A stretch of 21,012 nt of DNA from a virus. The translations under genes and the position numbers were made by a program. Below the pieces are notes generated by a model. It worked only from the letters and a program-made list of their open reading frames with translations, ran no database searches and was not told the DNA's origin. Every line of letters starts with the position of its first letter. The first letter of the stretch is position 1. Where the stretch lies: IMG/VR virus record IMGVR_UViG_3300030419_005163, positions 1-21,012 of that record; one strand, written 5' to 3'. This document shows, in pieces, positions 3,800 through 20,177 of this stretch.

Positions 3800-3807
3800 G
3801 GTGTAAT

Positions 3808-4059
3808 TTGAAATTAAATCATTTGCTACCCAGCCACTTAAGCAAGGGTCGCTGTAAAAATGGAAAGCAACATTTTTGGATACCAACCGGCGCTGTCGAG
3901 GCAAAACTGGGTGACAACGTTGCTATATGTCTTTTTTGCAAGCATTGCAATAAAAGAGAGTGGACTTTTTTAACACATAACGAATATAATATACACAAAG
4001 GAGTTATCGACAATGCGATTGAAACCAATGAATCGTCACTTGTTAATCGAATTAATTGA
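3808..4059 (+). CDS. Small zinc-ribbon-like protein
   Basis: This is an 83-residue protein of unknown role. I chose TTG at 3808 because GAGGTG just after the RNR coding end sits at a suitable distance; an in-frame TTG at 3787 would overlap RNR and has no clear ribosome binding site. Cys16 and the cluster Cys41, Cys44, Cys47 (ICLFCKHCNKREW), with nearby histidines, suggest a bound zinc ion. Similar small C-x2-C proteins are frequent in T4-like phages and are mostly uncharacterised. The 3' end overlaps the GroES-like gene by 47 bases, so the last 15 or so residues are encoded in two frames. Confidence 0.65.
   Translation: MKLNHLLPSHLSKGRCKNGKQHFWIPTGAVEAKLGDNVAICLFCKHCNKREWTFLTHNEYNIHKGVIDNAIETNESSLVNRIN
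3961..3990 (+). promoter_or_regulatory. Possible weak promoter before groES
   Basis: A perfect TATAAT at 3985-3990 lies 23 bases upstream of the GroES-like ATG. The best -35 candidate is TGGACT at 3961-3966 with an 18-base spacer, only four of six matches. A transcript starting near 3997 would begin at the ribosome binding site itself, which weakens the case. Confidence 0.25.
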
Positions 4060-4297
4060 ACACGAAGAGCAAGAAACTGACTTAGGCATTTTATTGCCGG
4101 AAAACTACAAGCCTACGCTTGATCACCATGCAGCCGTTCGCCTTCTTGACACTGCTAGCGATTGCAATCAAATTGGCAACCTTGTTGTCGGATCAACCTT
4201 TATTGTCAATCGGTCGATGATCGAAGAGGTGAGCTTCAACGGCAAAAAGTACCATGTTATTTTAGAAAATCATATAATTGGACGACTTGACTCGTAA
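4013..4297 (+). CDS. groES: GroES/gp31-like co-chaperonin
   Basis: This 94-residue protein has the outline of a 10-kDa chaperonin. It opens with MRLKPMNRHLLIE, equivalent to the 'xxPLxDRVxV' first strand. A flexible segment follows (about residues 17-32) containing GILLP, the hydrophobic tripeptide that docks GroES-type lids on GroEL. A beta-rich middle with VVGSTFIVNR and a last strand YHVILENHIIGRL match the GroES end, where the final residues specify activity. The length is close to GroES (97) and shorter than T4 gp31 (111). The ribosome binding site AAAGGAG at 3997-4003 supports this start. It would cap a GroEL ring; the same window encodes a GroEL at 18600. The homology is read from motif order, not from an alignment. 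Confidence 0.75.
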   Translation: MRLKPMNRHLLIELIEHEEQETDLGILLPENYKPTLDHHAAVRLLDTASDCNQIGNLVVGSTFIVNRSMIEEVSFNGKKYHVILENHIIGRLDS

Positions 4298-4314
4298 TTT
4301 TACTAGTTAATTAT

Positions 4315-4464
4315 GTGAAAGAACTTTGTTTAGTAGCTGTAGGGTTGAATATTGGGCTCATAATGCTTGGAATTGCCATGAGCAGTCACACTCTTACTAT
4401 TATGGCATTTGCATCAGCGTCTCTTTGTTTTTTGGGATATAAGTCTAGGTCAAAGAATGAGTGA
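4315..4464 (+). CDS. Tiny two-helix membrane protein (49 aa)
   Basis: A GTG-started frame encodes a very hydrophobic product with two predicted membrane segments: LCLVAVGLNIGLIMLGIAM (about residues 4-22) and LTIMAFASASLCFLGY (about 27-42). It ends in the basic tail KSRSKNE. It fills the gap between the co-chaperonin and Nudix genes and overlaps the Nudix ATG by eight bases. There is no clear ribosome binding site at the GTG, so the start and expression are uncertain. The membrane-like composition, the exact fit to the gap and the coupling to the next gene support it. A holin, an inner-membrane exclusion factor or an untranslated spacer are all possible. Confidence 0.5.
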   Translation: MKELCLVAVGLNIGLIMLGIAMSSHTLTIMAFASASLCFLGYKSRSKNE

Positions 4465-4837
4465 CACCGATCAAGTATCGAAAGTTGTAATATTGAGCAA
4501 GACAAATCGGTTTCTTGTTCTTCGCGTTTCGATGAATGAGAAATACCTGGGCCAGTGGGATCTTCCTGGCGGGCACCTAATTGTTGGCGAAGATCCAGAA
4601 GATGGCCTAGTTAGAGAAACATACGAGGAAACTGGACTGATTATCAAAAGCCCAACAAAAATGTATGCCGAAGACAAGGTAACATTTTACTATGCAAAGA
4701 TGCCGATCGGAACAATTAAATTAAGCGATGAGCACGATAAATATAGATTTTTAAGATTAGAGCAGATAGACGAATACGATATTTCCGATAAATTTAAGAG
4801 AGCAATAAATCAAGCATACAAGCTGGAGGCTGATTGA
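4457..4837 (+). CDS. Nudix hydrolase
   Basis: The 126-residue product carries a complete Nudix box at residues 39-61 (pattern G-x5-E-x7-R-E-U-x-E-E-x-G-U), preceded by WDLPGG. The catalytic Glu residues of REtyEEtG bind Mg2+ for hydrolysis of a nucleoside diphosphate linked to another moiety. I chose ATG at 4457, where the family's first strand follows closely (SKVVILSK); an in-frame TTG at 4409 would add unlikely residues. Substrate cannot be read from the sequence; oxidised dNTPs, NAD-like compounds, mRNA caps or nucleotide sugars are all known for phage Nudix enzymes. The stop overlaps the TTG start of the next gene, which includes a nucleotide-binding-like N-terminus. Confidence 0.88.
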   Translation: MSDTDQVSKVVILSKTNRFLVLRVSMNEKYLGQWDLPGGHLIVGEDPEDGLVRETYEETGLIIKSPTKMYAEDKVTFYYAKMPIGTIKLSDEHDKYRFLRLEQIDEYDISDKFKRAINQAYKLEAD

Positions 4838-5745
4838 AAAATCATGTATACGAATACGACAAGCTGGTAATTGGTAGCGACTTGTCAGCACTGATGTACG
4901 CACATATCAATAACATACCCGTGATATATACTGAGCCCAAAGTCTATCACTTCTTTGAAGCATTCGATCCCGAGCTTGTTGTCGGTCAAATTGCATCAGG
5001 CTTAAGATCCCGGGATATTGTGGCGCCCAATGGCCCGATACCCGTTGGCGTTTCAAAACAAGTGGTTTGGGCAAGACTGATTTATTTACTTTCTCTTTCT
5101 GGGCTTCTACCCTTGTCTGATAAAGCAAAGACAATTCGCATAGAGGACGAAAGTACGCTTAGGGTATCAACTGAGTATTCGAGATTTGTAAAATTTAAAT
5201 TTAATGAACTTTTGGTCTTTCATGATAATAATATCGAGGGAATCCCCACTCAAAAACAGGAAACAAAGTATGAAGTTTTAGATTGGATGAATGTAAAGTC
5301 TGGCATGATGCACCCTTTTGATAAAATAGAGACAGATTCCGATTTCGTTAGTCACATTTATTTTTATCCCTCCAACAGAATTGATGGGAATCATGACTTC
5401 AAAGATTTAGTTTCCATATCTTATTTGTCCGAAGCACAGCTCCAAGATTTTAATTTTTCCGATACATATGCGAGGTTTAAAATTGAAGACTTGATGCGTG
5501 AACACGGCATTAAGGGAAAAAAGAACGGCCGTCATTCAAAAAATCCCTCATTATCACGACACTTAGCAATCAAAGTCGAAGCAACAAAAAGAGAATTTAA
5601 AGTATGCACAGACGTAAAGTACATATCGTCGTCTGACAATATCAAAATTATGAACCTAGATACTAAAAATTTAATTTCCCAAGACGCGCCTAACAAGACT
5701 TACGCAGCAAAATTGATCGAGCAGTTTTATGGAAAACCACGATAA
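4834..5745 (+). CDS. Conserved-looking phage protein with Rossmann-like N-terminus
   Basis: This is a 303-residue protein without a firm family assignment. TTG at 4834 overlaps the Nudix stop (TTGA), and GGAGG lies at the right distance upstream. Residues 8-33 read YDKLVIGSDLSALMYA followed by a second strand (IPVIYTEP). This strand-turn-helix-strand pattern resembles a dinucleotide-binding fold, but the turn is G-S-D-L-S-A and lacks the classic GxGxxG. The middle (HIYFYPSNRIDGNHDFKDL, SYLSEAQLQDF) and the basic segment GIKGKKNGRHSKNP look like a folded phage-specific domain. It overlaps the nucleotidyltransferase-like gene by 17 bases, suggesting joint function. An FAD- or NAD-linked activity would be speculation. 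Confidence 0.75.
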   Translation: MKNHVYEYDKLVIGSDLSALMYAHINNIPVIYTEPKVYHFFEAFDPELVVGQIASGLRSRDIVAPNGPIPVGVSKQVVWARLIYLLSLSGLLPLSDKAKTIRIEDESTLRVSTEYSRFVKFKFNELLVFHDNNIEGIPTQKQETKYEVLDWMNVKSGMMHPFDKIETDSDFVSHIYFYPSNRIDGNHDFKDLVSISYLSEAQLQDFNFSDTYARFKIEDLMREHGIKGKKNGRHSKNPSLSRHLAIKVEATKREFKVCTDVKYISSSDNIKIMNLDTKNLISQDAPNKTYAAKLIEQFYGKPR

Positions 5746-6637
5746 AAAAACTTTTCATTTAGCAGGAATTGTTCCTGTTGCGGGCGGGGGAGTGGACTTT
5801 GGATTTGAGTGGTCCGACTGTATGATGCCAATTGCGCCAAACTATACAGCAGTAGAACGCGCTGTGGTCGAATGCGCATGGGCCGGCTGCGAGACGATCT
5901 GGATCATTTGCAATGACGATGTTTCGCCGCTGATACGGCACAGAATGGGCGACTTTATTCTTGACCCTGTATGGGCAAACAGATCCTTTGATAGGTTCCC
6001 GAGTGAAAGTAAAAAAATTATACCAATATTTTATGTGCCAATTCATCCAAAAGATAGAGGCAAAAGAGACTCGTTAGGTTGGAGCGTGTTGCATGGTGCT
6101 TTAACCGCGTTTAAAATTGCAGCTAAGATGAGTAGGTGGTTAATTCCTTCGCGATATTATGTGGCCTTTCCTTATGGAGTATACAACCCAGATATTTTGC
6201 GACAACATCGGAAAAAAATATCCAGCTCTGAGCCTTTTTACTTATTGTATGATAATAAAACAATTCGTGATGGAGAATATTTAGGATTTACATTTGATAA
6301 AGATGATTTTGTTAAATTTAGAAGAGTAGTAAGGGAGGGCACAGGCTTTTGGGATCCAGATAGTGACCGTCGCGATGGACGTTATCCGACAAAATCATTG
6401 CCAATTGAAGAAAGATACTCTGCAAGGCATTTTACGCTTGACAAAATTTTTAATTGTGTTATATTAGATAATGCGGAGGTAATAAGTTTACCGTGGTATT
6501 TCAATATTGACTGTTGGGATCGATATTGTAATTATATGGGCTCAAAAGAGCGCGAGAAGATTATTAAACCAACAAAATTGCTCAATGCAAGAAAACTAAA
6601 TTCAATAGGAGAATATATAAATGAGCACGACAGCTAA
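5729..6637 (+). CDS. Nucleotidyltransferase-like protein (GT-A/NTP-transferase fold)
   Basis: The first 75 residues follow the layout of nucleotide-sugar pyrophosphorylases. The opening strand GIVPVAGGG stands in for the usual 'xxLAGGxGxR', followed by CMMPIAPN as 'KPMxPI', a helix (ERAVVECAWAGCETIWIIC) and NDD at the end of the next strand. The basic residue normally after the glycine loop is not obvious, so substrate binding may differ or activity may be lost. The C-terminal 180 residues are rich in Tyr, Trp and Arg, with WFNIDCWDRY-type features I cannot place. In phages such proteins can serve capsule-like or DNA glycosylation pathways. The start at 5729 overlaps the previous gene; the next gene starts 17 bases before its end. 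Confidence 0.7.
   Translation: MENHDKKTFHLAGIVPVAGGGVDFGFEWSDCMMPIAPNYTAVERAVVECAWAGCETIWIICNDDVSPLIRHRMGDFILDPVWANRSFDRFPSESKKIIPIFYVPIHPKDRGKRDSLGWSVLHGALTAFKIAAKMSRWLIPSRYYVAFPYGVYNPDILRQHRKKISSSEPFYLLYDNKTIRDGEYLGFTFDKDDFVKFRRVVREGTGFWDPDSDRRDGRYPTKSLPIEERYSARHFTLDKIFNCVILDNAEVISLPWYFNIDCWDRYCNYMGSKEREKIIKPTKLLNARKLNSIGEYINEHDS
6438..6465 (+). promoter_or_regulatory. Promoter-like element inside the nucleotidyltransferase-like gene
   Basis: TTGACA at 6438-6443, a 16-base spacer and TATATT at 6460-6465, the same -10 hexamer as the helicase and GroEL promoters. It lies about 155 bases upstream of the small genes that lead into DNA polymerase III alpha, so it could give the polymerase operon its own transcript. 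It is embedded in coding sequence and could be chance. Confidence 0.45.
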
Positions 6638-6845
6638 TAAAAAGACAAAGGCCGATGTTGAGAAGGATCTGGCCAAAACTGAGAACAAGCTCACTTGGCA
6701 GACAGAAAGAAGAAAGAACACCCTGAAGCACGTTGGAGAGCTGCGGAAGTGGCTTTTGGAAGCGACCCCTCCCGCAAAGTGGGATTGGCTCAAAATGAGA
6801 ACAGAAATCGTTGCACGGCTGGATGAAGTAATTCAAAGGAGCTAG
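6621..6845 (+). CDS. Small helical hypothetical protein (74 aa)
   Basis: I do not recognise this product. It is highly charged and probably all-helical, with a coiled-coil-like stretch over residues 10-45 (VEKDLAKTENKLTWQTERR) and a conserved-looking ATPPAKWDWLKMR before a last helix. AGGAGA about eight bases upstream supports the ATG. It overlaps the previous gene by 17 bases and is followed five bases later by another small gene, ahead of the polymerase. No enzymatic motif is visible; a protein-binding or DNA-binding accessory role would be a guess. Confidence 0.7.
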   Translation: MSTTANKKTKADVEKDLAKTENKLTWQTERRKNTLKHVGELRKWLLEATPPAKWDWLKMRTEIVARLDEVIQRS

Positions 6846-6850
6846 CAAGC

Positions 6851-7054
6851 ATGAGAACCATAAATAAAATTTCATTGCAATTGACAGCGGAAGAATTGAA
6901 AGACGCTATTGAAGATTGGGTTCGTCGTGATGACGAACATGTCGCAAACCATTTGCGTGATAATCATTGTACAGTAGCTATGGGACAAATTGAAGATGTA
7001 CAAATCTTTCAACTCGATATCTCTGGAGAGTTCGTTGCAGCAGCAGAAGAGTAA
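6851..7054 (+). CDS. Small hypothetical protein (67 aa)
   Basis: This is an unrecognised acidic protein of about one helix plus two strands: ISLQLTAEELKDAIEDWVRR, then a His-rich turn (DEHVANHLRDNHC) and VQIFQLDISGEFV. AAAGGAG at 6836-6842 supports the ATG. Its 3' end overlaps the polymerase reading frame, and the best polymerase start lies 20 bases before this stop, so the two are probably translationally coupled. Nothing shows its function. Confidence 0.65.
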   Translation: MRTINKISLQLTAEELKDAIEDWVRRDDEHVANHLRDNHCTVAMGQIEDVQIFQLDISGEFVAAAEE

Positions 7055-10000
7055 AATTCCGTTCGTGGGCCTCCACGCTCATAGCGTGGCAGGCTCTATA
7101 TTTGATGCAATGGGTTATCCGCAAGAGCATATGGATTTTGCATATGAGAATGGATGCGATGCCCTGGCCTTAACTGATCACGGCAACATGAACGGCTTGG
7201 CTTATCAGGTCCTGCATGCAAAGAAAATGCAAGCGGATGGCAAAGATTTCAAACCGATTTATGGGTGTGAGGCATATTTCATTCCATCCATCGAAGAGTG
7301 GCGACAAGATTATGAAGCCGTGATGGAGGACAAGAAGAAGCGTAGAGCACATGCAAAGGAGGATCAATCTGGTGCAACAATTGAAGATGAAGACGCTAGC
7401 AAAAAAGCGATTAAAAGTATTCTTAATCGTCGTCGTCATCTTATTCTTCTAGCTCAAAATCAGACTGGATTAAATAATATTTTTAAACTTATCTCTGAGA
7501 GCTATAAGACTGAAAACTATTATCGGTATCCTCGCATGGATTACGATATGCTCGCCAAATACTCTGAGGGCGTGATAGCTGCATCTGCCTGTTTGGGCGG
7601 GGTGTATGCTGGAAACTACTGGGAGAACCGGGAGAATGGACCAGAGGCCGTCTTAGGCGCAATGCGGGAAACAACTCGCAAAATGGTGGCGATTTTTGAC
7701 GATCGTTGGTACGGCGAGTTGCAGTGGAATAATATTCCAGAGCAACATGAGTTGAATCAGTATATTATCAAGATGCATGAGGAGTTTGGCATTAAGCTGA
7801 TCTCTACAGCAGACAGTCATTATCCCAATCCAGATGCCTGGAAAGATCGGGAGCTTTATAAGCGCTTAGGTTGGCTTGGGAAGAGTCGGCCAGATTACGA
7901 AAGCACTGAGCTTCCCACGGGAACCGAAGCTATTGGATACGAATTGTACCCAAAGAACGGTGATCAGATGTGGAAATCATACAAAGACTATTCGGCGGCA
8001 TGCGGAGTTAACTATGATGACAACACAGTGAAAAACTCAATCATTGAAACACATAGGATTGCACATGAACGAATATCTACTTTTTATCCTGATAATACTG
8101 TGCGTTTGCCTGATTTTGTGGTCCCTGCAAACCTGACGGCAACGCAGGCGCTAACTCGTTTAAGTATTGATGGGCTTAAATCTTTTGACTTGCATGCAGA
8201 TCAAGAATATATCGATAGACTTAAGCACGAATTGCACGTCATTGATGATCGAGGTTTTAGTAAATACTTTCTCACAATGAAGGCAATTTCAGATAGGGCA
8301 TCGGGAATGATGCTCACTGGCCCGGGCAGAGGTTCAGCTGCTGGGTCATTGGTGGCATATGTCTTGGGAATTACGCAGGTTGATCCAATCAAGTACGGCT
8401 TGCTGTTCTCTCGCTTCTTACGTTCCGACGCAACTGACTATCCTGATATCGACTACGATGTCGCTGATCCGATGCAACTAAAAGAAAAGCTGATTGAAGA
8501 GTGGGGTGAGGATACTGTCGCCCCCATCTCCAATTGGAATACTTTGCAGCTTCGATCTTTGATCAAAGACATCTCAAAGTTTTATGGAATTCCATTTACG
8601 GAAGTCAATCCAGTGACCGGCCGCATGCTGCATGAGGCCAAGGGACCTGCAAAGAAGAAGCACGGCATTAAGGCTGGTGTTTATAACCCAACCTTTGAAG
8701 AGGTGATGGAGTTTAGCACATCTCTCCAGGCTTTCTTGAGGAAGTACCCGCACGTCAAGACTCATGTTGAGGCTCTTTATGGACAGGTGCGCTCTTGTTC
8801 TCGACATGCCGGCGGGGTGGTGGTCGCAGAGAACCTAGATCAATACATGCCGTTAATTAATTCAGGCGGTGTACGACAAACTCCATGGAGCGAAGGCCAG
8901 AATGTACGACATCTTGAGCCCATGGGCTTCATTAAGTTCGATATCCTTGGTCTTTCCACTTTGCGAATGATCGAGGGGTGTATCGAGCACGTTCTTCGTC
9001 GGCACCATGGAGTTGAAAATCCGACATTTGCACATGTGAGGGACTACTACAATCAACATCTTCACCCGGATGCAATTGATCTCAATGATCAGGAGGTATA
9101 TAAAAATATATTTCACAAGGGCAAATGGGCAGGAATTTTTCAATTCACTGAAGCTGGTGCGCAAGATTTTTGCAAACTAGCAAAGCCAACGAGCCTTATC
9201 GATATTTCAGCTATCACTTCAATTTATCGACCTGGGCCATTGAGCGCCGATGTTGATAAACAATTTGTTGAAGCTAAGGAATCTCCGCAATATATTAAAT
9301 ATATGTCTGAAGAGGTGCGAGAAATCACCGAAGAAACATATGGCTTTCTAATCTTTCAGGAACAAATTGCTCTGTTGGCTCACAAGCTAGGAAAAGATCT
9401 GACCCTTGATGAAGGTAACCTGCTTCGCAAGCTACTTACTAAAAAAGGAACAGGCAAGGGCAATGAGGCGAAGACGAAGATTTATGAAAAGTTTATGCAA
9501 GGCTGCAGCGAAAAAGGCATGCAAAAAGTGGATTCCCAAAAACTATGGGACACTTTTGAGTATTTCTCTGGGTATGGTTTTAATAAATCACACGCTGTCT
9601 CATATTCAATCTTGTCGTTTCAATGCGCATGGCTAATGAATTACTATCCAGTAGAATGGATGGCAGCATTTCTTGACAAAGAGCCCGAGAGCAGAAAAGA
9701 AAAGGCAATTAATATTGCCAAGCAACACGGTTTCAACATTGAGACAGTTGACATTAATCGTTCTGGTATGGTGTGGGAAATTATAGGAAATGATAGCACG
9801 CTTGTTCAACCTTTAAGCTCTATTAAAGGACTGGGCGAAAAGGCAATTGAACAAATTATTAATTACAGACCGTTCAACACAATTGAGGAATTTTTGTTTC
9901 ACGACGACATCAGCTACTCTAAATTAAATAAAAAATGTTTGGACGTGCTGGTTAGATCTGAGGCACTAACTTCTTTGATGGATGATCGTTTTGCGAACAT

Positions 10001-10469
10001 GAAACATTTTTGGTACTGCGTGGCCGTCGATCGAGTTCGCAAGGCTGGCAAGTTTCATGAGAATATCGAACTTACAAAAGACGAGCCAGACTTTACCGAA
10101 GAGGAGAAGATTCAATACCTTGTTGATTTAACTGGTATTTTTCCAATGAACAGGGTAGTTGATGAGAAGATTTTACGCAACTTGAGCGATAAATATATTC
10201 CTCCAATCTCCGAGTATGATTCAGAATTGCAGTTGACTTGGTTTATTCCGCGTGATATAATTCCAAAGAAGACAAAGAATGGAAAAACATATTGGATTGT
10301 TGAGGTAATTGATTCTACTAGTGCGCTAACAAAGATTAAATGTTGGGGAGTGAATCCAAGCCGAGATATAATTTATGTAAATCGTCCTTATCTTGCAAAA
10401 CTAGATTTCGATCCTCAATGGGGATTCTCAACTCGTTCAATTAGGCACAATTTTAGGTTATTAGGATGA
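7035..10469 (+). CDS. dnaE: DNA polymerase III alpha subunit (DnaE type) with apparently intact PHP domain
   Basis: This is the chain-elongating replicative polymerase, 1144 residues, close to bacterial DnaE (about 1160). The PHP domain is at residues 10-290 with all expected metal ligands: H14, H16, D24, H49, E79, H135, C186, D260, H262. The C-family polymerase core has GPGRGSAAGS (429-438), catalytic PDIDYD (D471, D473) and KFDILGL (D636). YRPGP, FQEQ and GYGFNKSHAVSY follow, then helix-hairpin-helix-like and C-terminal OB-fold-like regions (LTWFIPRDI near 1075). I chose TTG at 7035, with GGAGAG upstream; in-frame TTG 6990 and ATG 6996 would overlap the previous gene more and have weaker ribosome sites. 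No separate proofreading exonuclease or sliding clamp is visible in the window. It overlaps ClpP 1 by four bases. Confidence 0.95.
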   Translation: MQQQKSKIPFVGLHAHSVAGSIFDAMGYPQEHMDFAYENGCDALALTDHGNMNGLAYQVLHAKKMQADGKDFKPIYGCEAYFIPSIEEWRQDYEAVMEDKKKRRAHAKEDQSGATIEDEDASKKAIKSILNRRRHLILLAQNQTGLNNIFKLISESYKTENYYRYPRMDYDMLAKYSEGVIAASACLGGVYAGNYWENRENGPEAVLGAMRETTRKMVAIFDDRWYGELQWNNIPEQHELNQYIIKMHEEFGIKLISTADSHYPNPDAWKDRELYKRLGWLGKSRPDYESTELPTGTEAIGYELYPKNGDQMWKSYKDYSAACGVNYDDNTVKNSIIETHRIAHERISTFYPDNTVRLPDFVVPANLTATQALTRLSIDGLKSFDLHADQEYIDRLKHELHVIDDRGFSKYFLTMKAISDRASGMMLTGPGRGSAAGSLVAYVLGITQVDPIKYGLLFSRFLRSDATDYPDIDYDVADPMQLKEKLIEEWGEDTVAPISNWNTLQLRSLIKDISKFYGIPFTEVNPVTGRMLHEAKGPAKKKHGIKAGVYNPTFEEVMEFSTSLQAFLRKYPHVKTHVEALYGQVRSCSRHAGGVVVAENLDQYMPLINSGGVRQTPWSEGQNVRHLEPMGFIKFDILGLSTLRMIEGCIEHVLRRHHGVENPTFAHVRDYYNQHLHPDAIDLNDQEVYKNIFHKGKWAGIFQFTEAGAQDFCKLAKPTSLIDISAITSIYRPGPLSADVDKQFVEAKESPQYIKYMSEEVREITEETYGFLIFQEQIALLAHKLGKDLTLDEGNLLRKLLTKKGTGKGNEAKTKIYEKFMQGCSEKGMQKVDSQKLWDTFEYFSGYGFNKSHAVSYSILSFQCAWLMNYYPVEWMAAFLDKEPESRKEKAINIAKQHGFNIETVDINRSGMVWEIIGNDSTLVQPLSSIKGLGEKAIEQIINYRPFNTIEEFLFHDDISYSKLNKKCLDVLVRSEALTSLMDDRFANMKHFWYCVAVDRVRKAGKFHENIELTKDEPDFTEEEKIQYLVDLTGIFPMNRVVDEKILRNLSDKYIPPISEYDSELQLTWFIPRDIIPKKTKNGKTYWIVEVIDSTSALTKIKCWGVNPSRDIIYVNRPYLAKLDFDPQWGFSTRSIRHNFRLLG

Positions 10470-11068
10470 AAATTACATATAAAAAAGATCCATTACTTCA
10501 TAAAGTTGAATTGCATCGCACGCCTGTTATTATTCGTGTAAATAAATTTGATGAAAAGTCTGCTCAAGAGTTTTCTGAAAAAATGAGCGATGCACACAAC
10601 ACCGGCCAGCCAGTAATTCCAATTGTTATTGATTCATATGGTGGTCAAGTGTATTCGCTAATGGCAATGATTTCAGAGATTGAGCATTCGGAAGTTCCTG
10701 TTGCAACAATTGTTGAAGGTAAGGCGATGTCCTGTGGTGCGATCCTTTTTTCCTTTGGGCAGAGTGGTATGCGATTCATGGATCCAAATGCTACCGTGAT
10801 GATTCACGATGTATCGTCTATGGAGAGGGGCAAGGTTGAGGAAATCAAGGCGTCAGCAGAAGAAACTGAAAGACTTAATAAAAAAGTATATACCATGATG
10901 GCTCGCAATTGCGGAAAGAGAGATGATTATTTTTTAAAGATTGTGCATAAAAAAGGACATGCAGATTGGTTTTTAGATGCCGATGAGTGTCTAAAGCACA
11001 AGTTGGCGAATCATGTTCGCGTGCCAAAGTTTAATCTTGAGGTCGCAGTTGATTTTAGTTTTGAATAA
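10466..11068 (+). CDS. clpP: ClpP-like serine protease 1 (Ser-His-Asp triad)
   Basis: This 200-residue ClpP/crotonase-fold peptidase would assemble into rings and degrade unfolded or delivered substrates. The oxyanion strand has IDSYGGQ (56-61). The nucleophile is Ser89 in GKAMSCGA, the His is His114 in VMIHDVS, and Asp167 in HADWFLDADE sits at the E. coli Asp171 position, so the triad is complete. ATG overlaps the polymerase stop (ATGA). No ClpX, ClpA or other AAA+ unfoldase is visible here, so a host unfoldase or unassisted peptidase action is likely. Head-maturation protease is an alternative role, as ClpP-fold proteases do this in some phages, but no capsid gene is next to it. Confidence 0.9.
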   Translation: MKITYKKDPLLHKVELHRTPVIIRVNKFDEKSAQEFSEKMSDAHNTGQPVIPIVIDSYGGQVYSLMAMISEIEHSEVPVATIVEGKAMSCGAILFSFGQSGMRFMDPNATVMIHDVSSMERGKVEEIKASAEETERLNKKVYTMMARNCGKRDDYFLKIVHKKGHADWFLDADECLKHKLANHVRVPKFNLEVAVDFSFE

Positions 11069-11071
11069 TTG

Positions 11072-11565: not shown

Positions 11566-12019
11566 ATATTGTAGAGTAAGACCTGACGTGAAGCCCCCAA
11601 CAAGGGGGCACCCGTCTGATGCGGGACTCGATGTATATTATTGCCCAGATAACCCAAGCGAGGTTGGTGTTAATTTAAAGCCCGGTGATAGTAAGATTCT
11701 ACCAACGGGCCTTCGCTTTGGTGTGCCGCACGGCTATATGCTGGAGGTGAAAAACCGATCAAGCATGGCCTCAAAACGAAGTTTAATTGTCGGAGCGTGC
11801 GTAGTTGATTCTGGATATGATGGGGAGGTGTTTATAAATCTTCACAATATTGGATCCGAGGATCAATTTGTTGCGGCCGGCACTAAAATTGCACAGGTAG
11901 TAATGATTCCAGTTGTTTCGTTTAGAGCAATTGAGTCTTCAGCTAGCGATCTTTACGATTGGTATCCGATTACCATTAGCGATCGCGGCAAGGGAGCCTT
12001 GGGGAGCACCGGGGAATGA
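11555..12019 (+). CDS. dut: dUTPase (deoxyuridine triphosphatase)
   Basis: This enzyme hydrolyses dUTP to dUMP and pyrophosphate, keeping uracil out of DNA and feeding dTMP synthesis. The 154-residue trimeric-type protein has the five family motifs in order: SDAGLDV (21-27), NRSS (67-70), VVDSGYDG (83-90, with the Asp85/Tyr88 pocket), GTKIAQVV (109-116) and RGKGALGSTG (144-153). In motif 5 the usual Phe that stacks on uracil is Leu149, a mild deviation that could lower affinity. I chose ATG at 11555, just before the first strand; an earlier in-frame ATG at 11486 would overlap the previous gene heavily. It overlaps the next gene by four bases. Confidence 0.92.
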   Translation: MLLEYCRVRPDVKPPTRGHPSDAGLDVYYCPDNPSEVGVNLKPGDSKILPTGLRFGVPHGYMLEVKNRSSMASKRSLIVGACVVDSGYDGEVFINLHNIGSEDQFVAAGTKIAQVVMIPVVSFRAIESSASDLYDWYPITISDRGKGALGSTGE

Positions 12020-12573
12020 ACCGACAGCAGGAAAGTGAAAATTTTAAAAAATTGCAATTTAGTGCTGATTTAGCCAAGTTAGTAAAACACACTAGGCAGG
12101 TAGGCTTTTTTAATATGGGCGAAGATGCCTCGTTTCCTCATATCGAGTTTGCAATTCCAGACACGCAGATAAAAGATCGTTACTGGTGCAAAGACGATAG
12201 CAATTGTGGTGAAAATCTTTATGAGTATACACTCAGAAACACCAGAACAACAAAAATAATATATGATTATGACGCGACTTATTTTAAGGATATTTATAAT
12301 TTATTATCTGCAAAATATAAACTTGGCAGGATGAGGCTTCTTGGCCTACAGCCAAATCGCTCGCTGTCATGGCACAGGGAACCTGATGAAAGAATCGTCA
12401 TCCCGGTGATCACTAATCCTGGCGCGCATATGGTCATAGGGGGTGAAAATAAGCACCTCCCTGCTGATGGTTCAGCTTGGTATTGCGACACGACAAAATT
12501 CCACACAGCTTTTAATGGAGGCTTTGACCTTCGGGTACATTTAATTATTACTTATAATGGTGAATTAGGATGA
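12016..12573 (+). CDS. Putative 2OG-Fe(II) oxygenase, aspartyl hydroxylase-like
   Basis: The C-terminal 80 residues have the signature of the Asp/Asn beta-hydroxylase-like cupin fold. SWHREPDERIVIPVITN gives His120 and Glu122 (or Asp124) as the first iron ligands. GSAWYCDTTKFHTAFNGG gives His163 as the distal ligand. DLRVHLII gives Arg173 and His175, where the 2-oxoglutarate-binding Arg is expected. The N-terminal 100 residues are less clear and include YWCKDDSNC. Such enzymes hydroxylate amino acid side chains or modify nucleobases and small molecules; phages carry many uncharacterised ones. It lies in a tight operon of ATGA overlaps between dUTPase and a zinc ribbon. The HxE form of the first ligand pair needs structural modelling. 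Confidence 0.7.
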   Translation: MNRQQESENFKKLQFSADLAKLVKHTRQVGFFNMGEDASFPHIEFAIPDTQIKDRYWCKDDSNCGENLYEYTLRNTRTTKIIYDYDATYFKDIYNLLSAKYKLGRMRLLGLQPNRSLSWHREPDERIVIPVITNPGAHMVIGGENKHLPADGSAWYCDTTKFHTAFNGGFDLRVHLIITYNGELG

Positions 12574-12827: not shown

Positions 12828-13024
12828 TTTATACAGCAATTTTTCAATATGATGATGGCCGCCTGCGTTCAGAGATACACAACGCGCCACCAGATCGAGA
12901 TCTTGCATGGAAGCAGATCTATGAGGGTCGGAATCAGACAGACGCTTGTTTGATTGTACTGATTACCGGCAATCACTATATTTTTACATACCAGGATTTA
13001 CAAAGGATAGAAGATGAATATTAA
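12824..13024 (+). CDS. Small hypothetical protein (66 aa)
   Basis: I do not recognise this protein. It is a compact alpha/beta protein: strand MIYTAIFQYDDGRL, helix DRDLAWKQIYEG, strand CLIVLITGNHYIF, helix TYQDLQRIEDEY. The ATG overlaps the previous stop (ATGA), with AATTGGAGG upstream as ribosome binding site. It overlaps the IMPDH/GMPR gene by 11 bases. No motif suggests an activity. Confidence 0.65.
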   Translation: MIYTAIFQYDDGRLRSEIHNAPPDRDLAWKQIYEGRNQTDACLIVLITGNHYIFTYQDLQRIEDEY

Positions 13025-14042
13025 ACATACAATTTGTTACGATGATGTGCTGTTAGTGCCCCAATATTCAAGCATCCAGTCGCGAAAAGAGATTGATATT
13101 AGCAACTCTTTGTCGGACATCGAGTTTTCAATGCCGATTATTTCTGCCCCAATGGATACAGTTACAGGAGCAGCGATGACGAAAATTTTGGACAACAAGG
13201 GTGGCCTTGGAATTGTTCATCGCTACAACACAATAGAGCAACAAGTTAAGATGATCAAGCGTGCCCATCGAATGCATGGTGCAAAAAATGTTGCGGCTGC
13301 AATTGGTGTCACTGGAGACTATATTGATAGGGCCATTGCGCTGCATGAAGCCGGTGTTAAAATTCTATGTATCGACGTGGCACACGGTCACCACACAATG
13401 ATGCGACACTCTTTGGAAGTCTTGCGCAACACGATCGGCACAACAGCACACATCATGGCTGGGAATGTTGCAACACTCGAAGGCTTTAACGACCTGTCGG
13501 ACTGGGGCGCTGACTCAATCAGGGTTGGAATTGGTGGCGGTTCAATCTGCTCCACCAGAACACAAACTGGCCATGGCGTACCAACGCTACAATCAGTGAT
13601 TGATTGTTCCAGATCTGATCGCGATGCAAAAATTATCGCAGATGGCGGAATTAGGACTTCTGGAGATATCGTCAAAGCGCTTGCAGCAGGCGCAGACTTT
13701 GTAATAGTTGGATCATTGTTGGCCGGGACCACACAAGCTCCTGGTGAAGTCTTTTACCAAGATGGCGAAAGATACAAAACCTATCGAGGCATGGCATCAG
13801 CAGAGGCCCAGAAAGATTGGCGCGGATCGACCTCTTCATTAGAGGGTATATCAACGAGCGTCCCTTACAAAGGAGATGCAGCCGATGTGCTGGAGAATTT
13901 AGAGCGTGGTATTAGAAGCGGCCTATCGTATACTGGCGCTAGCGATTTGAAAGAGTTACGCGCCAAAGCGAAGTTTATTTTGCAGTCAACCGCCGGCATT
14001 CAAGAAAGTGCCACGCACATCCAGTGGAGATATGATCGGTGA
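13014..14042 (+). CDS. IMP dehydrogenase/GMP reductase family enzyme, no CBS domains
   Basis: This is a TIM-barrel purine enzyme of 342 residues. Family features are CYDDVLLVPQYSS at the start, SAPMDTVT (44-51), the catalytic Cys loop GGGSICSTRTQTG with Cys179 and Thr181, IADGGIRTSGDIVKALAAGA as the phosphate-binding region, and YRGMASAEA plus EGISTSVPYKG near the flap. It could make XMP from IMP (towards GTP) or IMP from GMP. The length matches GMP reductase (about 347) or a CBS-less IMPDH; normal IMPDH has an inserted CBS pair and about 490 residues. SAPMDTVT and SICSTR favour the IMPDH side, but the flap Arg-Tyr pair of IMPDH is not clear. I therefore leave the direction open. RBS: AAAGGAT at 13001-13007. 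Confidence 0.88.
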   Translation: MNIKHTICYDDVLLVPQYSSIQSRKEIDISNSLSDIEFSMPIISAPMDTVTGAAMTKILDNKGGLGIVHRYNTIEQQVKMIKRAHRMHGAKNVAAAIGVTGDYIDRAIALHEAGVKILCIDVAHGHHTMMRHSLEVLRNTIGTTAHIMAGNVATLEGFNDLSDWGADSIRVGIGGGSICSTRTQTGHGVPTLQSVIDCSRSDRDAKIIADGGIRTSGDIVKALAAGADFVIVGSLLAGTTQAPGEVFYQDGERYKTYRGMASAEAQKDWRGSTSSLEGISTSVPYKGDAADVLENLERGIRSGLSYTGASDLKELRAKAKFILQSTAGIQESATHIQWRYDR

Positions 14043-14607: not shown

Positions 14608-14670
14608 ATAAGGTTATTTAGCAATTTCACAACTATTTAATAACAGTTATTCTTTTAGGAGATTTTACAC

Positions 14671-15261: not shown

Positions 15262-15289
15262 TCTTTGAAGCTCTTCTTTTAACATAAAC

Positions 15290-15320
15290 ATGCCACCGCA
15301 TGAGCGGTGGCATTTCATTT
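15290..15320 (+). terminator. Rho-independent-type terminator
   Basis: A perfect 10-base-pair stem (ATGCCACCGC at 15290-15299 and GCGGTGGCAT at 15304-15313) with the loop ATGA is followed by TTCATTT. The stem is GC-rich and strong; the T tract is short and interrupted. It sits between the acidic protein stop and the next ribosome binding site, so it probably ends or attenuates the upstream transcript. Confidence 0.8.
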
Positions 15321-15332
15321 GATGAGGTGATA

Positions 15333-15710: not shown

Positions 15711-15740
15711 GTGTTATAATCTACAATACTGGAGATACAA

Positions 15741-16373
15741 TTGAGATTCAATGAACAATTAAAAGCCGACGATAAGGTCACCACGGCCATAGCACACAGT
15801 GCCGTCGAAGATGAGATGCGAACGATCGGTATCGTTGGCGATGTTGACGAAGAAAAGTGTGCAGAGATATTGTACTCGCTGATTGTATTACAAAAATCAG
15901 CAAAAATTATCGTACCCGAGGATCCCGAGGATCCAGATACTGGCGTCACACAAATCGTAAGACCGATTGAATTTATTATATCCACATGTGGTGGATCGGC
16001 TGATGAAATGTTTGCTTTGTACGATGTTATGAGAAACGTACAAAAAGATTGTGATATAATTACACGCGGCTTAGGCAAAGTAATGTCAGCCGGCGTGTTA
16101 CTCTTAGCTGCTGGAACAAAAGGCAAGAGAGAGATAGGCAAGCATTGTAGGGTTATGATCCATAGTGTAATTGCCGGCAATGCTGGCTCCTTTCACAATC
16201 TGGAAAACGAGATGGAAGAGGTCAGAAATACACAAGAGCAATACATTAAGGCTTTGGTTGGAGAAACCAACATGACTACAAGACAACTAAAAAAGATGTT
16301 AGAAAGAAAGGTAAATATTTATCTTACAGCACAAGAAGCGGTCGAATTGGGTATTGCTGACATAATTATATAA
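15741..16373 (+). CDS. clpP: ClpP-like serine protease 2 (Ser-His-Asn)
   Basis: This is a second ClpP-fold peptidase, 210 residues, distant from ClpP 1 of this window. TTG at 15741 has GGAG six bases upstream. The substrate-binding strand has ISTCGGSADE (80-89). The nucleophile is Ser116 in GKVMSAGV, and the His is His141 in VMIHSV. The position of the catalytic Asp holds Asn192 in KVNIYLTAQEAVELGIAD (codon AAT at 16314-16316). Ser-His-Asn triads are known, for example in Listeria monocytogenes ClpP1, which works in a mixed complex with ClpP2. An acidic insert (EDPEDPD, residues 60-66) interrupts the N-terminal part. A phage-specific, regulated or mixed protease is inferred; a prohead protease remains possible. 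Confidence 0.88.
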   Translation: MRFNEQLKADDKVTTAIAHSAVEDEMRTIGIVGDVDEEKCAEILYSLIVLQKSAKIIVPEDPEDPDTGVTQIVRPIEFIISTCGGSADEMFALYDVMRNVQKDCDIITRGLGKVMSAGVLLLAAGTKGKREIGKHCRVMIHSVIAGNAGSFHNLENEMEEVRNTQEQYIKALVGETNMTTRQLKKMLERKVNIYLTAQEAVELGIADIII

Positions 16374-16392
16374 GTATAGGAGTATCTGCATA

Positions 16393-17019
16393 ATGGCAAA
16401 GATAACTGGAGCGGCAGCACGTTTGCTTGTTGAGCAATTTCGCTGCATCGTGGAGAAGAAAGGATATGTCTTTTTTGAGGGGCGTAAACCATATGACGTT
16501 AATATCATCGGCGTCAGGAGCGACGAGGCACGCGCTAACAAATTCGATGACAGCCTTTATGTAATTTACAAGAACACGCTCAAAGATTGGGAAGTTAGAC
16601 TTTACAAAATAACAACCGATCCTGGCACATATTATTTAAAAAATCCAATGAAAGTGACCGGCACTGCAATTGTTGTCCCGGGCCAGTACAGGTCGGCCTA
16701 CAAAAGAGGGACTCATTATACATATGAAGCTCTTGTCCAACGAGGCAAAAATCCAATAAAAATCTATCGTGATTCAAATAAAGACGAAATACTTGACATG
16801 TCAAACGATACTGTAACTGAGGGCTGGTACGGGATTAATATCCACAAGGCAGGATCTGATTCAAAAAATGTTGACCGCTGGTCAGCCGGCTGTCAAGTTT
16901 TCAAAACCAGTAGTGATTTCAATGACTTCATGAAACTAGTTTGTAGGTCTGAAAAATATTGGGGTAAGTATTTTAGCTACACGCTTTTAGAAGAGAAAGA
17001 TTTTAAGGATTGCAAATGA
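16393..17019 (+). CDS. Putative YkuD-like L,D-transpeptidase or lysin
   Basis: This is a 208-residue protein. The C-terminal third carries WYGINIHKAG (His151) and VDRWSAGCQVF (Ser164, Gly166, Cys167), the His...Ser-x-Gly-Cys layout of YkuD-type L,D-transpeptidases, whose Cys acts on peptidoglycan stem peptides. In typical YkuD the sequence is SHGC; here His is replaced by Ala (SAGC), so this is a variant branch. The N-terminal half (GVRSDEARANKFDDSLYVIY and on) is beta-rich and probably part of the fold. There is no signal peptide, so it would need a holin or act from the virion. It may be an endolysin-type or cell-wall-editing enzyme. AGGAG upstream (16379-16383) supports ATG 16393. It overlaps the next gene by four bases. 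Confidence 0.75.
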   Translation: MAKITGAAARLLVEQFRCIVEKKGYVFFEGRKPYDVNIIGVRSDEARANKFDDSLYVIYKNTLKDWEVRLYKITTDPGTYYLKNPMKVTGTAIVVPGQYRSAYKRGTHYTYEALVQRGKNPIKIYRDSNKDEILDMSNDTVTEGWYGINIHKAGSDSKNVDRWSAGCQVFKTSSDFNDFMKLVCRSEKYWGKYFSYTLLEEKDFKDCK

Positions 17020-18536
17020 AAAAGCTCGATGAGACAATTGATAGATTTTTTAGCGAAGATGATAGCTTGACGTTAAAAACTTTATTTGAAGAAGTGGAAA
17101 AAGTTGTAGACCTTTTTGAGATACGGACTTCAATTGTCGAGCAGACAGAGAGTCCTGATGATCCGTTGGCGCAGGCATTTAAAAAAGCTGTTGAGGATAA
17201 AGATATTCAAGCACTTTTGCCAACAATTAAGATCACCGAAGCATGGGGCAAACTTGGCAAGCGTGATCGCACCGTTATTGAAAAGTGGACAGCACAGCTT
17301 GGTGGCGAGGGCAACACTGTACAGGATAAACTATCGTTAATTAATGACGTTATGACTGGTAAGGCCGCACAGGCCACAAGTATCTCTCAAATATTAACCA
17401 CGATGATGGTTATCGAAACTTTAAATGCCATTCTAGGTGAATTCACAGAATCAGCCGGTGGTTTTATTTTTGAAGGTTTTTTGGCGGGCTTATTTGGTGG
17501 ACAATCAGTGCAAATCGAAACACCGGAAGACATTAAAACAGCCACTGGGCAAGAAGTTGAAGCCGCCGGCAAGCCTATTACTGATGTTGTGTTAGCTGGT
17601 AGGCATTACTCTCTTAAATTGCTTGGCAAATCAACGGCGGTTAAAGGATCGTTTAAAAACATGGTCGAGCACTTTAAGAGTGGTATTGATCATGTTGTTT
17701 ACTTGGATGCTCGTCGTAAAGGCGAAGACCTACATTTTTCAGAATTTGAAATTACCTTATCCACATTCTTGGAGGCTTTTTATGAACCTTTCGCAGCTTT
17801 TGCAAAGAAGACCGTAACTGTTGACACTGTACAGAAATTAAGAAATCGACACAAAAAGTTTGATGATCAAATATTTTTAATCAGAACATCAAAAAAGTTA
17901 TCTCGTCGTGATTATCCTGACATTGGTGGACGCTCAAAGTTTCAAAGCATAACTGACAGAGAGACTGGCGAGGTCAACCGACAGCTAATTGACAAATTAA
18001 TGGAATTGCCAGACGATGTTTTGCAACAATTGGGCCCTTTTGCCATTGCATATTCTTCTGAAAGTTACGCTAAAAGCACCAAGGCGCGAGCCTTGTTTGG
18101 GCCGGTTGGCCAATTCAATGATCTAAAAGATGCGTTTGATCAATACAAGGCTGGCGATCTTTCTGCTGAAAAACTTTTTCCCTTTTTAGAAAGAACACCG
18201 GCATACACTCAGCAAAAACAATTTGCACTAACTCCAACTCAAGTTGAAAAAATCGCATCTTACAATGAAGTTGGGACATTAAGTTTGGGAGAGTCCGGTT
18301 TGAAAAATCTTTGGACATTGTACGCCGAGCGTCTTATCGAAACTATCGCGCCAGTTTATTTTTTCTTAAATACTTTCACGCAAAATATTAATAGTTATTT
18401 CTTGTCCAATCCGACCGAAGAAACCAGTAGATTTGGATATGGCACTAAGGCAATTGCTGCTGCTGAAAAAGTCAAGGAGTCGTCTGCCACCGCCGTCAAG
18501 GCGCTAACACCATCAGATGACGAACTTGAGTCATAA
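17016..18536 (+). CDS. Large uncharacterised phage protein with possible nuclease-like core
   Basis: This 506-residue protein resembles conserved but uncharacterised proteins of T4-like marine phages (from memory). ATG 17016 overlaps the previous stop and has AAGGA upstream; an in-frame TTG lies six bases earlier. An N-terminal helical region (1-130) precedes a hydrophobic AGGFIFEGFLAGLFGG. ITDVVLAGRHYSLKLLGKS then gives Glu153, Asp190 and Ser199-x-Lys201. This E...D...SxK spacing recalls PD-(D/E)XK nucleases, with Ser where the acidic residue is usual. The C-terminal half is helical, ending in an Ala/Lys/Ser-rich tail. A virion structural protein or DNA-acting enzyme both fit; confidence in any function is low. 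Confidence 0.7.
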   Translation: MKKLDETIDRFFSEDDSLTLKTLFEEVEKVVDLFEIRTSIVEQTESPDDPLAQAFKKAVEDKDIQALLPTIKITEAWGKLGKRDRTVIEKWTAQLGGEGNTVQDKLSLINDVMTGKAAQATSISQILTTMMVIETLNAILGEFTESAGGFIFEGFLAGLFGGQSVQIETPEDIKTATGQEVEAAGKPITDVVLAGRHYSLKLLGKSTAVKGSFKNMVEHFKSGIDHVVYLDARRKGEDLHFSEFEITLSTFLEAFYEPFAAFAKKTVTVDTVQKLRNRHKKFDDQIFLIRTSKKLSRRDYPDIGGRSKFQSITDRETGEVNRQLIDKLMELPDDVLQQLGPFAIAYSSESYAKSTKARALFGPVGQFNDLKDAFDQYKAGDLSAEKLFPFLERTPAYTQQKQFALTPTQVEKIASYNEVGTLSLGESGLKNLWTLYAERLIETIAPVYFFLNTFTQNINSYFLSNPTEETSRFGYGTKAIAAAEKVKESSATAVKALTPSDDELES

Positions 18537-18552
18537 TAAACAAAAACAATAC

Positions 18553-18581
18553 TTGACAAAATAATAAAAATAGATTATATT
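18553..18581 (+). promoter_or_regulatory. Sigma-70-type promoter upstream of GroEL
   Basis: TTGACA at 18553-18558, a 17-base spacer, TATATT at 18576-18581, with the 12-base palindrome TATATTAATATA at 18576-18587. It has the same design as the helicase promoter. The predicted transcript start near 18588 leaves only about a dozen leader bases before the TTG start, with the ribosome site (GAGGTG) at its very 5' end. Confidence 0.8.
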
Positions 18582-18599
18582 AATATAAAGAGGTGTATA

Positions 18600-20177
18600 T
18601 TGTCAGATTTTAAAATGGCATTTGATTCAAATGCGTCACTAAACCAGAAGATTCTTGATGGTGTCAATGTTCTAGCAGATAACGTAGCTACAACCTTGGG
18701 TCCAAAGGGAAGAAATGTTATATTACAACAGAAGGGTGCCGACCCTATCATTACAAAGGATGGTGTAACTGTTGCACAGTTTGTTCATTTAGACGATCCG
18801 TTTATGAATTCCGGCGCACAGATAATTAAGCAGGCTGCGGTTCAGACCAATTCCGATGCTGGCGATGGAACAACAACATCGACAGTTTTAGCAAGAGCGA
18901 TCTTGGCACAGTCCCAGACCTATTTGGCCACCGGTATTTCGCCAGTTGAGCTTAAGCGTGGTATCGACAAGTGCTCAAAGGCTATTGTAAACCGGTTAAA
19001 AGATATGGCTGACCCCGTTAAAAGCGAGGAGGACATCGCACATGTTGCTACAATTTCGGCTAACAATGACGCAGCGATTGGAAAACTAATTGCCACCGCT
19101 GTTGATCGCGTTGGAAAAGATGGTGCAATCACCATCGAGGAAGCGAGGTCTATGAGTACCTCGCTGGACATCGCTGAGGGGTTTAGCTTTGATTCTGGCT
19201 TTTGTGCTACCGCGTTTATCACTGATGAGCGAAGAGGCACCATGCATTATGATGAGCCACTTATCTTGGTTACCGACTACAAGGTGACAACCGTCGAGCA
19301 GATACTTCCAATCCTTGAAATCGTAGCAAGAGAGGGTCGTCCATTTGTGTTGGTAGCTGAAGACGTTGAAGGTCAAGCGTTGGCTGCTATGATAATGAAT
19401 GCAATGCGCGGATCTCTAAAAGTCGCAGCAATTAAGGCACCAAGATATGGAGAAGAGCGTAGGGGCATACTAAGCGATTTAGCCATTTCTGTCAATGCTA
19501 CTTTTATATCGCGAGAATCAGGAACGAAACTACATGAAACCACTTTGGATATGCTTGGTACAGCCATGTCTATCGAATGTACAAGAAACTTTACTACAAT
19601 CGTTGGCGGCAATTCCAATTATGAATTGGTAGAAAAGCGAATTGAATCGCTCAAGTCCGAACTGACCCGCACAGAATCCATGCACGATTGTGCACGCATT
19701 CAAGAGCGCATTACGAGATTGGCCAGTGGCGTTGCTGTCATTAAGGTGGGTGCTGCCACGGAGATTGAGATGACAGAGAAAAAGCATCGCATTGAGGATG
19801 CGCTGGAAGCTGTCCGATCAGCGCAGCTTGAGGGAATCGTTCCTGGCGGCGGGACAGCGCTGCTGCGTGCCATCAAGGGGCTGAAGGTTGATTATGACAA
19901 TGAAGACCAGCGCCTGGGCATTGAGATTGTAAAGAGGGCGGTTCAAGAACCCATTAGACAAATGGCGCTTAATTCTGGGGAGTCTCCAGACATTATTGTT
20001 CGGATGGTTTCAAAACGCTCCGGTTCGCACGGGTATGATTTTCGTAATGGCAAGATTGTAGACATGATTGAATCAGGAATTATTGACCCTGTGAAGGTGA
20101 CATGTTCTGCTGTGACCAATGCCGCATCTGTCGCCGGAACCCTTATTACAACAAATTATGCAATTGTTGAGATTTAG
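18600..20177 (+). CDS. groEL: GroEL (60-kDa chaperonin)
   Basis: This 525-residue group I chaperonin would form the folding chamber, presumably closed by the GroES-like lid encoded at 4013. ATP-site motifs are present: LGPKGRNV, KDGVTVA, GDGTTT (88-93, Asp89) and RIEDALEA (Asp400, the E. coli Asp398 equivalent). IKVGAATE and GIVPGGGTALL are further family blocks. E. coli GroEL has 548 residues; the missing part is mainly the C-terminal GGM-rich tail, as the protein ends at TTNYAIVEI. In the host protein that tail lines the cavity. TTG at 18600 is supported by GAGGTG; ATG at 18615 is an alternative. It is a single-gene transcription start behind a strong promoter. Host-derived ancestry is inferred. 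Confidence 0.95.
   Translation: MSDFKMAFDSNASLNQKILDGVNVLADNVATTLGPKGRNVILQQKGADPIITKDGVTVAQFVHLDDPFMNSGAQIIKQAAVQTNSDAGDGTTTSTVLARAILAQSQTYLATGISPVELKRGIDKCSKAIVNRLKDMADPVKSEEDIAHVATISANNDAAIGKLIATAVDRVGKDGAITIEEARSMSTSLDIAEGFSFDSGFCATAFITDERRGTMHYDEPLILVTDYKVTTVEQILPILEIVAREGRPFVLVAEDVEGQALAAMIMNAMRGSLKVAAIKAPRYGEERRGILSDLAISVNATFISRESGTKLHETTLDMLGTAMSIECTRNFTTIVGGNSNYELVEKRIESLKSELTRTESMHDCARIQERITRLASGVAVIKVGAATEIEMTEKKHRIEDALEAVRSAQLEGIVPGGGTALLRAIKGLKVDYDNEDQRLGIEIVKRAVQEPIRQMALNSGESPDIIVRMVSKRSGSHGYDFRNGKIVDMIESGIIDPVKVTCSAVTNAASVAGTLITTNYAIVEI

What the first reader, a model, noticed from the sequence alone, without database searches (positions are those of the whole stretch)
4013..20177. 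Phage encodes both a GroES-like lid and a GroEL, 14 kb apart
The gene at 4013 reads as a co-chaperonin and 18600 as a full GroEL. Known phages usually carry only a lid (T4 gp31) or, more rarely, only a GroEL (phage EL). Having both suggests a private folding chamber for a difficult virion protein, and its separated genes have different promoters. GroEL also lacks the GGM-type tail, hinting at a modified cavity.
Basis: partly seen in the sequence, partly recalled or inferred. Interest (0 to 1): 0.75.

Follow-up and report, generated by a model that had tools for sequence, protein, structure and literature searches.

The report
Phage-encoded GroES lid and GroEL chamber
This marine T4-like phage carries genes for both halves of a bacterial protein-folding machine, chamber and lid, probably to fold its own capsid protein; the pair is real and fixed in its lineage, but phages carrying both halves are already known.

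Summary
4013-4297 encodes a Cpn10/GroES-family lid: Pfam PF00166 above cut-off, mobile-loop motif G-I-L-L, and the 35 best PDB fold matches are all Cpn10-type, including T4 gp31. 18600-20177 encodes a full group I GroEL (45% identical to E. coli) with all ATPase residues checked kept bar one substitution (N479D) and no GGM tail. The window is an IMG/VR fragment of an uncultivated lineage of about 195-203 kb marine phages with T4-type heads (Gp23 capsid protein). Both genes occur in 32 of 50 related records searched, always in the same order, on the same strand, 14.3-19.7 kb apart. Of the other 18, 17 end before groES would be reached and one is marginal. groEL has its own conserved sigma-70-type promoter; groES has none of its own in most relatives and lies behind dnaB-nrdJ. 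The rarity premise is wrong: 10 of 18 GroEL-bearing phage representatives searched also carry Cpn10, six of them far from groEL, and papers report such phages. The missing GGM tail is also usual for phage GroELs. Best reading: a phage-encoded GroEL/GroES machine, most likely for the Gp23-type capsid protein (client inferred). New member of a known kind.

The parts
4013..4297 (+). groES-like gene (Cpn10 family lid), 94 aa, ATG start, AAAGGAG ribosome-binding site
   Evidence: PF00166 26.1 bits > cut-off 21.1; phrog_3188; PDB GroES; fold search; conserved in 32 records
4061..4114 (+). mobile-loop stretch of the lid (residues 17-34, HEEQETDLGILLPENYKP) with the G-I-L-L hydrophobic motif
   Evidence: aligns with the E. 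coli GroES mobile loop GIVL; L28 and P29 invariant, G25 and I26 nearly so in 15 relatives; lowest-confidence, strandless part of the model
18600..20177 (+). groEL gene, group I chaperonin, 525 aa, TTG start, no GGM tail
   Evidence: PF00118 1.1e-64; phrog_5725 2.6e-141; PDB 5e-160; residues; tree
18553..18581 (+). sigma-70-type promoter of groEL, TTGACA-17-TATATT (11/12)
   Evidence: a match of 10/12 or better occurs in 86% of 64 distinct groEL upstream stretches against 3.4% of random stretches
406..434 (+). candidate promoter TTGACA-17-TATATT before the dnaB-nrdJ-groES run
   Evidence: an equivalent 11/12 site precedes the dnaB homologue in G042
3369..3397 (+). candidate promoter TTGACA-17-TATAAT inside nrdJ, 615 nt before groES; not general in the lineage
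1826..3799 (+). nrdJ-like class II ribonucleotide reductase, upstream neighbour of groES
   Evidence: PF17975 9.7e-29, PF21995 2e-12; same order in G005 and G042
3787..4059 (+). small conserved ORF between nrdJ and groES (Cys-rich, zinc-ribbon-like by eye); exact start uncertain, listed extent overlaps groES
   Evidence: tblastn matches in relatives

Best explanation
The two genes encode a complete phage GroEL/GroES chaperonin. The GroEL homologue forms the ATP-driven ring, and the GroES homologue caps it by docking its I-L-L mobile loop on the apical helices of the phage GroEL. The main client is probably the phage's Gp23-type major capsid protein, as in T4, where gp31 and host GroEL fold gp23. 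groEL is transcribed from its own strong host-type sigma-70 promoter; groES is read with the dnaB-nrdJ genes. Shown here: homology, fold of the lid, conservation of catalytic and docking-type residues, co-occurrence, fixed gene order, groEL promoter conservation, and presence of a Gp23 capsid protein in a complete relative. Inferred: ring assembly, pairing of this lid with this ring, and the identity of the client.
For: Family assignment of both proteins. Lid model: the 35 best PDB matches are all Cpn10-type, T4 gp31 among them, and the mobile-loop region is unstructured. Lid motif G-[IL]-[ILVM]-L-P in nearly all relatives. GroEL T30, G32, K51, D52, D87-T91, D398, G415 and D495 invariant in 66 relatives; docking/substrate residues F204, L234 (L/M), L237, L259, I/V263, M264 and R268 kept hydrophobic or identical. 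Both genes in 32 of 50 records, same order and strand, 14.3-19.7 kb apart; 17 of the other 18 records end short of that point. Gp23 capsid protein (PF07068 1.2e-71) and Gp20 portal (1.7e-28) in G005. gp23 of T4 needs GroEL and gp31 (PMC3012670). groEL promoter conservation.
Against: No lid-ring complex was modelled, so docking is unproven; the lid could serve host GroEL. The apical residue Y203 is A in the whole family and S201 is A or G, which could weaken or reshape docking. The client is inferred by analogy only; the capsid gene itself lies outside this window. The window is a fragment.
Confidence: 0.8

Rival explanations
1. The lid works on the host GroEL, as T4 gp31 does, while the phage GroEL works alone without a lid, as phage EL and OBP chaperonins are reported to do.
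For: Genes are 14 kb apart with different transcription. Phages that carry GroEL without a detectable Cpn10 exist: AR9, EL, OBP, phi14:2, cr111, JM-2012. Phage EL chaperonin does not interact with E. coli GroES (PMC7185714).
Against: Co-occurrence is essentially universal in this lineage. The phage GroEL keeps group I GroES-docking positions, unlike EL and AR9, which diverge there.
Confidence: 0.12
2. The phage GroEL and lid boost general folding or proteostasis of the infected cell, or fold several phage proteins (tail, replication), rather than the capsid protein in particular.
For: groES sits in a replication and nucleotide-metabolism block (DnaB-like helicase, class II RNR, PolIII alpha) and groEL has a host-type promoter, which fits early expression. 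The window also has two ClpP-type proteases.
Against: No positive evidence for another client; the lineage has the Gp23 capsid type known to need a special GroE cage.
Confidence: 0.35
3. Host genes picked up recently, or a chimaeric assembly or bacterial contamination.
For: One Opitutia MAG contig carries a family GroEL.
Against: All 19 family GroELs sampled form one clade (SH-aLRT 100) on a long branch, apart from the bacterial GroELs sampled; identity to E. coli is only 40-46%. Flanking genes are phage-type and syntenic in complete relatives. The MAG contig aligns with family phage contigs beyond groEL.
Confidence: 0.02

Closest known systems
Vibrio phages Pv27 / phiKT1024 / Va1
   Same: Large phages with a T4-like Gp23 family head (reported for Pv27), encoding GroES and GroEL as separate, non-adjacent genes; GroEL without GGM tail (PMC12063606).
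   Different: GroEL only 42-44% identical to the window; genes about 8 kb apart; groEL lies between tail sheath and tail tube genes; the GroEL groups with E. coli and other Vibrio phages in the tree.
Flavobacterium phage immuto, elemo phages, Cellulophaga phi40:1, Bacteroides phage SJC03
   Same: Phage genomes with both a Cpn10 and a GroEL.
   Different: The two genes are adjacent or nearly so; lid sequences lack the FKPVNR start of this lineage.
T4 gp31 with host GroEL
   Same: Cpn10-type lid in a phage with a Gp23 capsid protein; same fold hit in the model search (1g31).
   Different: T4 has no GroEL of its own; gp31 is longer (111 aa).
Phage EL and OBP chaperonins
   Same: Phage-encoded GroEL homologues.
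   Different: 22-26% identical to the window protein for EL, no Cpn10 detected in their genomes, different residues at the GroES-docking positions (EL).
Viral GroEL/GroES of the virioplankton (Marine et al. 2017, ISME J; text not held)
   Same: According to PMC7185714, which cites it, some phages have both GroEL and GroES homologues.
   Different: I could not read it, so whether this very lineage was described there is unknown.

Membership tests
Cpn10 / GroES family | Match to the family profile above the curated cut-off | tested here: met
   PF00166 26.1 bits against 21.1; the six-frame genome search at E 0.001 missed it, so it is a divergent member
Cpn10 / GroES family | Cpn10 beta-barrel fold | tested here: met
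   Model pLDDT 75.4, pTM 0.60; the 35 best PDB matches are Cpn10-type chains, three with E below 0.001, TM 0.45-0.59 for most
Cpn10 / GroES family | Flexible mobile loop with a hydrophobic tripeptide (IVL in E. coli) | tested here: met
   G-I-L-L at residues 25-28, conserved in relatives; region 15-38 strandless and low confidence
Cpn10 / GroES family | Heptameric lid that docks on a Cpn60 ring | not testable with these tools
   Only single-chain prediction offered
Group I chaperonin GroEL | Full-length Cpn60 match with equatorial, intermediate and apical domains | tested here: met
   Profile positions 1-487 of 490; no group II helical protrusion insert seen in the alignment
Group I chaperonin GroEL | ATP-binding and hydrolysis residues | tested here: met
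   T30, G32, K51, D52, D87-T91, D398, G415, D495 invariant in 66 relatives; N479 is D or N in all but two
Group I chaperonin GroEL | Hydrophobic GroES/substrate-docking surface of the apical domain | tested here: met
   F204, L234, L237, L259, I263, M264 kept; Y203 is A
Group I chaperonin GroEL | Double-ring tetradecamer | not testable with these tools
   Inter-ring positions are altered: E461 is S and S463 is D in all 66, R452 mostly kept; effect unknown
Bacterial GroEL | C-terminal GGM-repeat tail | tested here: not met
   Absent in the family and in all phage GroELs compared; the tail is not required for family membership
T4-type phage head | Gp23 capsid protein and Gp20 portal in the same genome | tested here: inconclusive
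   Met in the complete relative G005; the window is a fragment that does not reach these genes

The most novel reading that the evidence does not exclude
A complete, host-independent GroE machine fixed throughout a large uncultivated marine T4-like lineage, with a ring whose inter-ring contacts are changed (E461S, S463D in every member) so that it may act as a single ring or make a larger chamber, co-adapted with its own divergent lid for a large Gp23 (about 600 aa).
Probability: 0.2. Interest if true: 0.5.

Novelty: new member of a known kind. Interest (0 to 1): 0.3.

Why it matters
It shows that an entire lineage of abundant-looking marine T4-like phages keeps both halves of the GroE machine, in a fixed but split gene order and with a strong promoter for groEL. 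That makes the phage independent of the host lid and perhaps of the host ring for capsid folding, and gives a natural set of 30 or more co-inherited lid-ring pairs in which lid-ring specificity can be studied. It does not overturn anything: phages with both genes are already reported.

Tried and rejected
(1) Rarity of a phage with both genes: rejected and by papers. (2) Contamination or recent host capture: rejected by synteny and tree. (3) Lid as a chance ORF: rejected by conservation in 32 records. (4) T4 late promoter (TATAAATA) as the driver: near-matches are more frequent than in shuffles (50 against 30), but only one exact site, on the minus strand, so not used. (5) A promoter of its own for groES: a 10/12 site lies just upstream and a 12/12 site lies 615 nt upstream inside nrdJ, but most relatives have neither. 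(6) Host identification: the only cellular hit was a MAG contig that looks like the phage itself, so the host stays unknown. (7) Marine et al. 2017 could not be read. (8) A tblastn search for the lid in the phage collection found nothing, which reflects low sensitivity, since profile searches find Cpn10s there. (9) Residue table used numbering off by one and was replaced.

Full report
WHAT IS THERE. The window is a 21,012-base IMG/VR virus record. The genes followed all lie on the plus strand: a DnaB-like helicase, a class II ribonucleotide reductase, the lid, a PolIII alpha, two ClpP-like proteases and others, ending with GroEL. The ORF at 4013-4297 matches Cpn10 (PF00166, 26.1 bits, cut-off 21.1), phrog_3188 'co-chaperonin GroES' and solved GroES chains. 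The ORF at 18600-20177 is a full-length GroEL (PF00118 1.1e-64; phrog_5725 2.6e-141; PDB down to 5e-160).

THE LID. Its sequence has the GroES layout, with ETDLGILLPENYKPT in place of the E. coli mobile loop ETKSAGGIVLTGSAAAK. In 15 relatives P5, N7, R8, L28, P29, D50, M69, N86 and G90 are invariant, and G25 and I26 nearly so. An AlphaFold2 model from 15 relatives has mean pLDDT 75.4; residues 15-38 carry no strand, and 18-21 are the least certain. Foldseek against the PDB gives Cpn10-type chains for the first 35 places, among them human, mycobacterial, Thermus and E. coli lids and T4 gp31. TM-scores are moderate (about 0.45-0.59 for most), as expected for a lid modelled alone with a loose loop.

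THE RING. The GroEL is 45% identical to E. coli (family range 40-46%). All ATP-site residues checked except N479 (D or N in all but two) and I493 (I or V) are invariant in 66 relatives. Docking and substrate positions F204, L237, L259 and M264 (V in E. coli) are invariant, L234 is L or M, and 263 is I or V. Family-wide departures are Y203A, R197S/A, G374S, E461S and S463D. E461 and S463 lie at the inter-ring contact in E. coli (established knowledge), so ring pairing may differ; this is a lead, not a result. The C-terminus stops one to five residues from E. coli position 524 on. None of the other phage GroELs compared has a GGM-repeat tail either, while E. coli and most of the cellular GroELs do.

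THE LINEAGE. A scan of IMG/VR found 155 stretches encoding a GroEL relative (80 kept, 62-95% identical). The lid was then searched in 50 of these records: 32 have it. In all 32 it lies on the same strand and 14.3-19.7 kb upstream of groEL. Of the 18 without it, 17 end less than 14.3 kb upstream of groEL; G035 has 14,382 nt, just over the shortest spacing seen. So the pair is, as far as can be seen, universal in this lineage. Two records, 203,204 and 195,459 bases, repeat their first bases at their ends and are probably complete. The larger encodes a Gp23 capsid protein (PF07068 1.2e-71), a Gp20 portal (1.7e-28), a T4-type terminase and a tail sheath: a T4-type contractile phage. Gene order around the window is largely shared with both.

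TRANSCRIPTION. A sigma-70-like promoter TTGACA-17-TATATT lies directly before groEL. In 64 distinct upstream stretches from relatives a match of 10/12 or better occurs in 86%, against 3.4% in random stretches of the same loci; it is a perfect 12/12 site in both large genomes. groES shows no such conservation (18% at 10/12 or better, mean score close to control), and a longer upstream search finds sites in only a few relatives. groES is therefore probably read with dnaB and nrdJ, which have a candidate promoter at 406-434. These are consensus sites, not mapped starts.

ORIGIN. In a maximum-likelihood tree of 51 GroELs the 19 family members form one clade (SH-aLRT 100) on a branch of 1.1 changes per site, separate from 14 verrucomicrobial and three proteobacterial sequences. 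Sampling of bacteria was narrow, several phage rows are long-branched, and the deeper placement is not trusted. A family GroEL in an Opitutia MAG sits on a short contig that aligns with family phage contigs beyond the gene, so it is more likely phage DNA in the bin than a host gene.

IS IT UNUSUAL? No. 273 phage records match this GroEL, although some of these 'phage' records are bacterial contigs. Of 18 representatives searched whole, 10 also have a Cpn10 above the Pfam cut-off. It is adjacent or nearly so in immuto, SJC03, phi40:1 and elemoB, and roughly 8 to 138 kb away in phiKT1024, Va1, K452, 1.244, 2.275 and VAP7; it is not detected in AR9, EL, OBP and others. Published isolates report both genes: Maribacter phage Panino (PMC11590407) and Vibrio phage Pv27, which has GroES as ORF14, GroEL as ORF24 and a Gp23-family head (PMC12063606). 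PMC7185714 states that some phages have both, citing Marine et al. 2017, which was not available to me.

HOW IT MOST LIKELY WORKS. The lid caps the phage's own ring; the leading client is the Gp23-type capsid protein (596 aa in G005), by analogy with T4, whose gp23 folds only with GroEL and gp31, apparently in an enlarged cage (PMC3012670). Shown: families, lid fold, residues, co-inheritance, gene order, groEL promoter and the capsid type of a relative. Inferred: docking of this lid on this ring, oligomeric state and client. A lid working on host GroEL remains possible.

VERDICT. The added value is the lineage-wide fixation, the split order and the conserved groEL promoter.

Noticed in passing
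L125:10930 (G005) and other ORFs of G005 and G042, e.g. G042 92666 and 10213: Several proteins of the two large relatives begin with a shared motif like MKLLLENWRRFLNE (5-9 per genome by a loose pattern). It resembles a T4-type capsid-targeting sequence with an (I/L)xE cleavage site; no control for chance was run.
   Followed up: partly
window 10466-11068 and 15741-16373: Two different ClpP-family proteases in one phage fragment, both similar to head maturation proteases in PHROGs.
   Followed up: no
window 13014-14042: A 342-aa protein whose sequence looks like IMP dehydrogenase / GMP reductase, conserved in relatives (58-69%); read by eye, no profile run.
   Followed up: no
window 17010-18536: 508-aa protein directly before groEL without Pfam or PHROG family; the ORF in the same place in G005 and G042 is 577-580 aa but barely similar.
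   Followed up: partly
window 3787-4059: Small Cys-rich ORF between nrdJ and groES, conserved in many relatives; its listed extent overlaps the groES start.
   Followed up: partly
window 12016-12573: Aspartyl/asparaginyl beta-hydroxylase-like protein (PF05118 3.1e-6), with no match in the four relatives compared.
   Followed up: no
L161 (PBSV01000084.1, Opitutia MAG): An 8.5-kb contig of a bacterial MAG carries a family phage GroEL; probably phage DNA in the bin, perhaps a weak hint at the host.
   Followed up: partly
window 16393-17019: YkuD-like protein, sub-threshold in Pfam (17.4 bits against 23.4) but strong to phrog_3000 and an endolysin PHROG: possible lysis enzyme.
   Followed up: no
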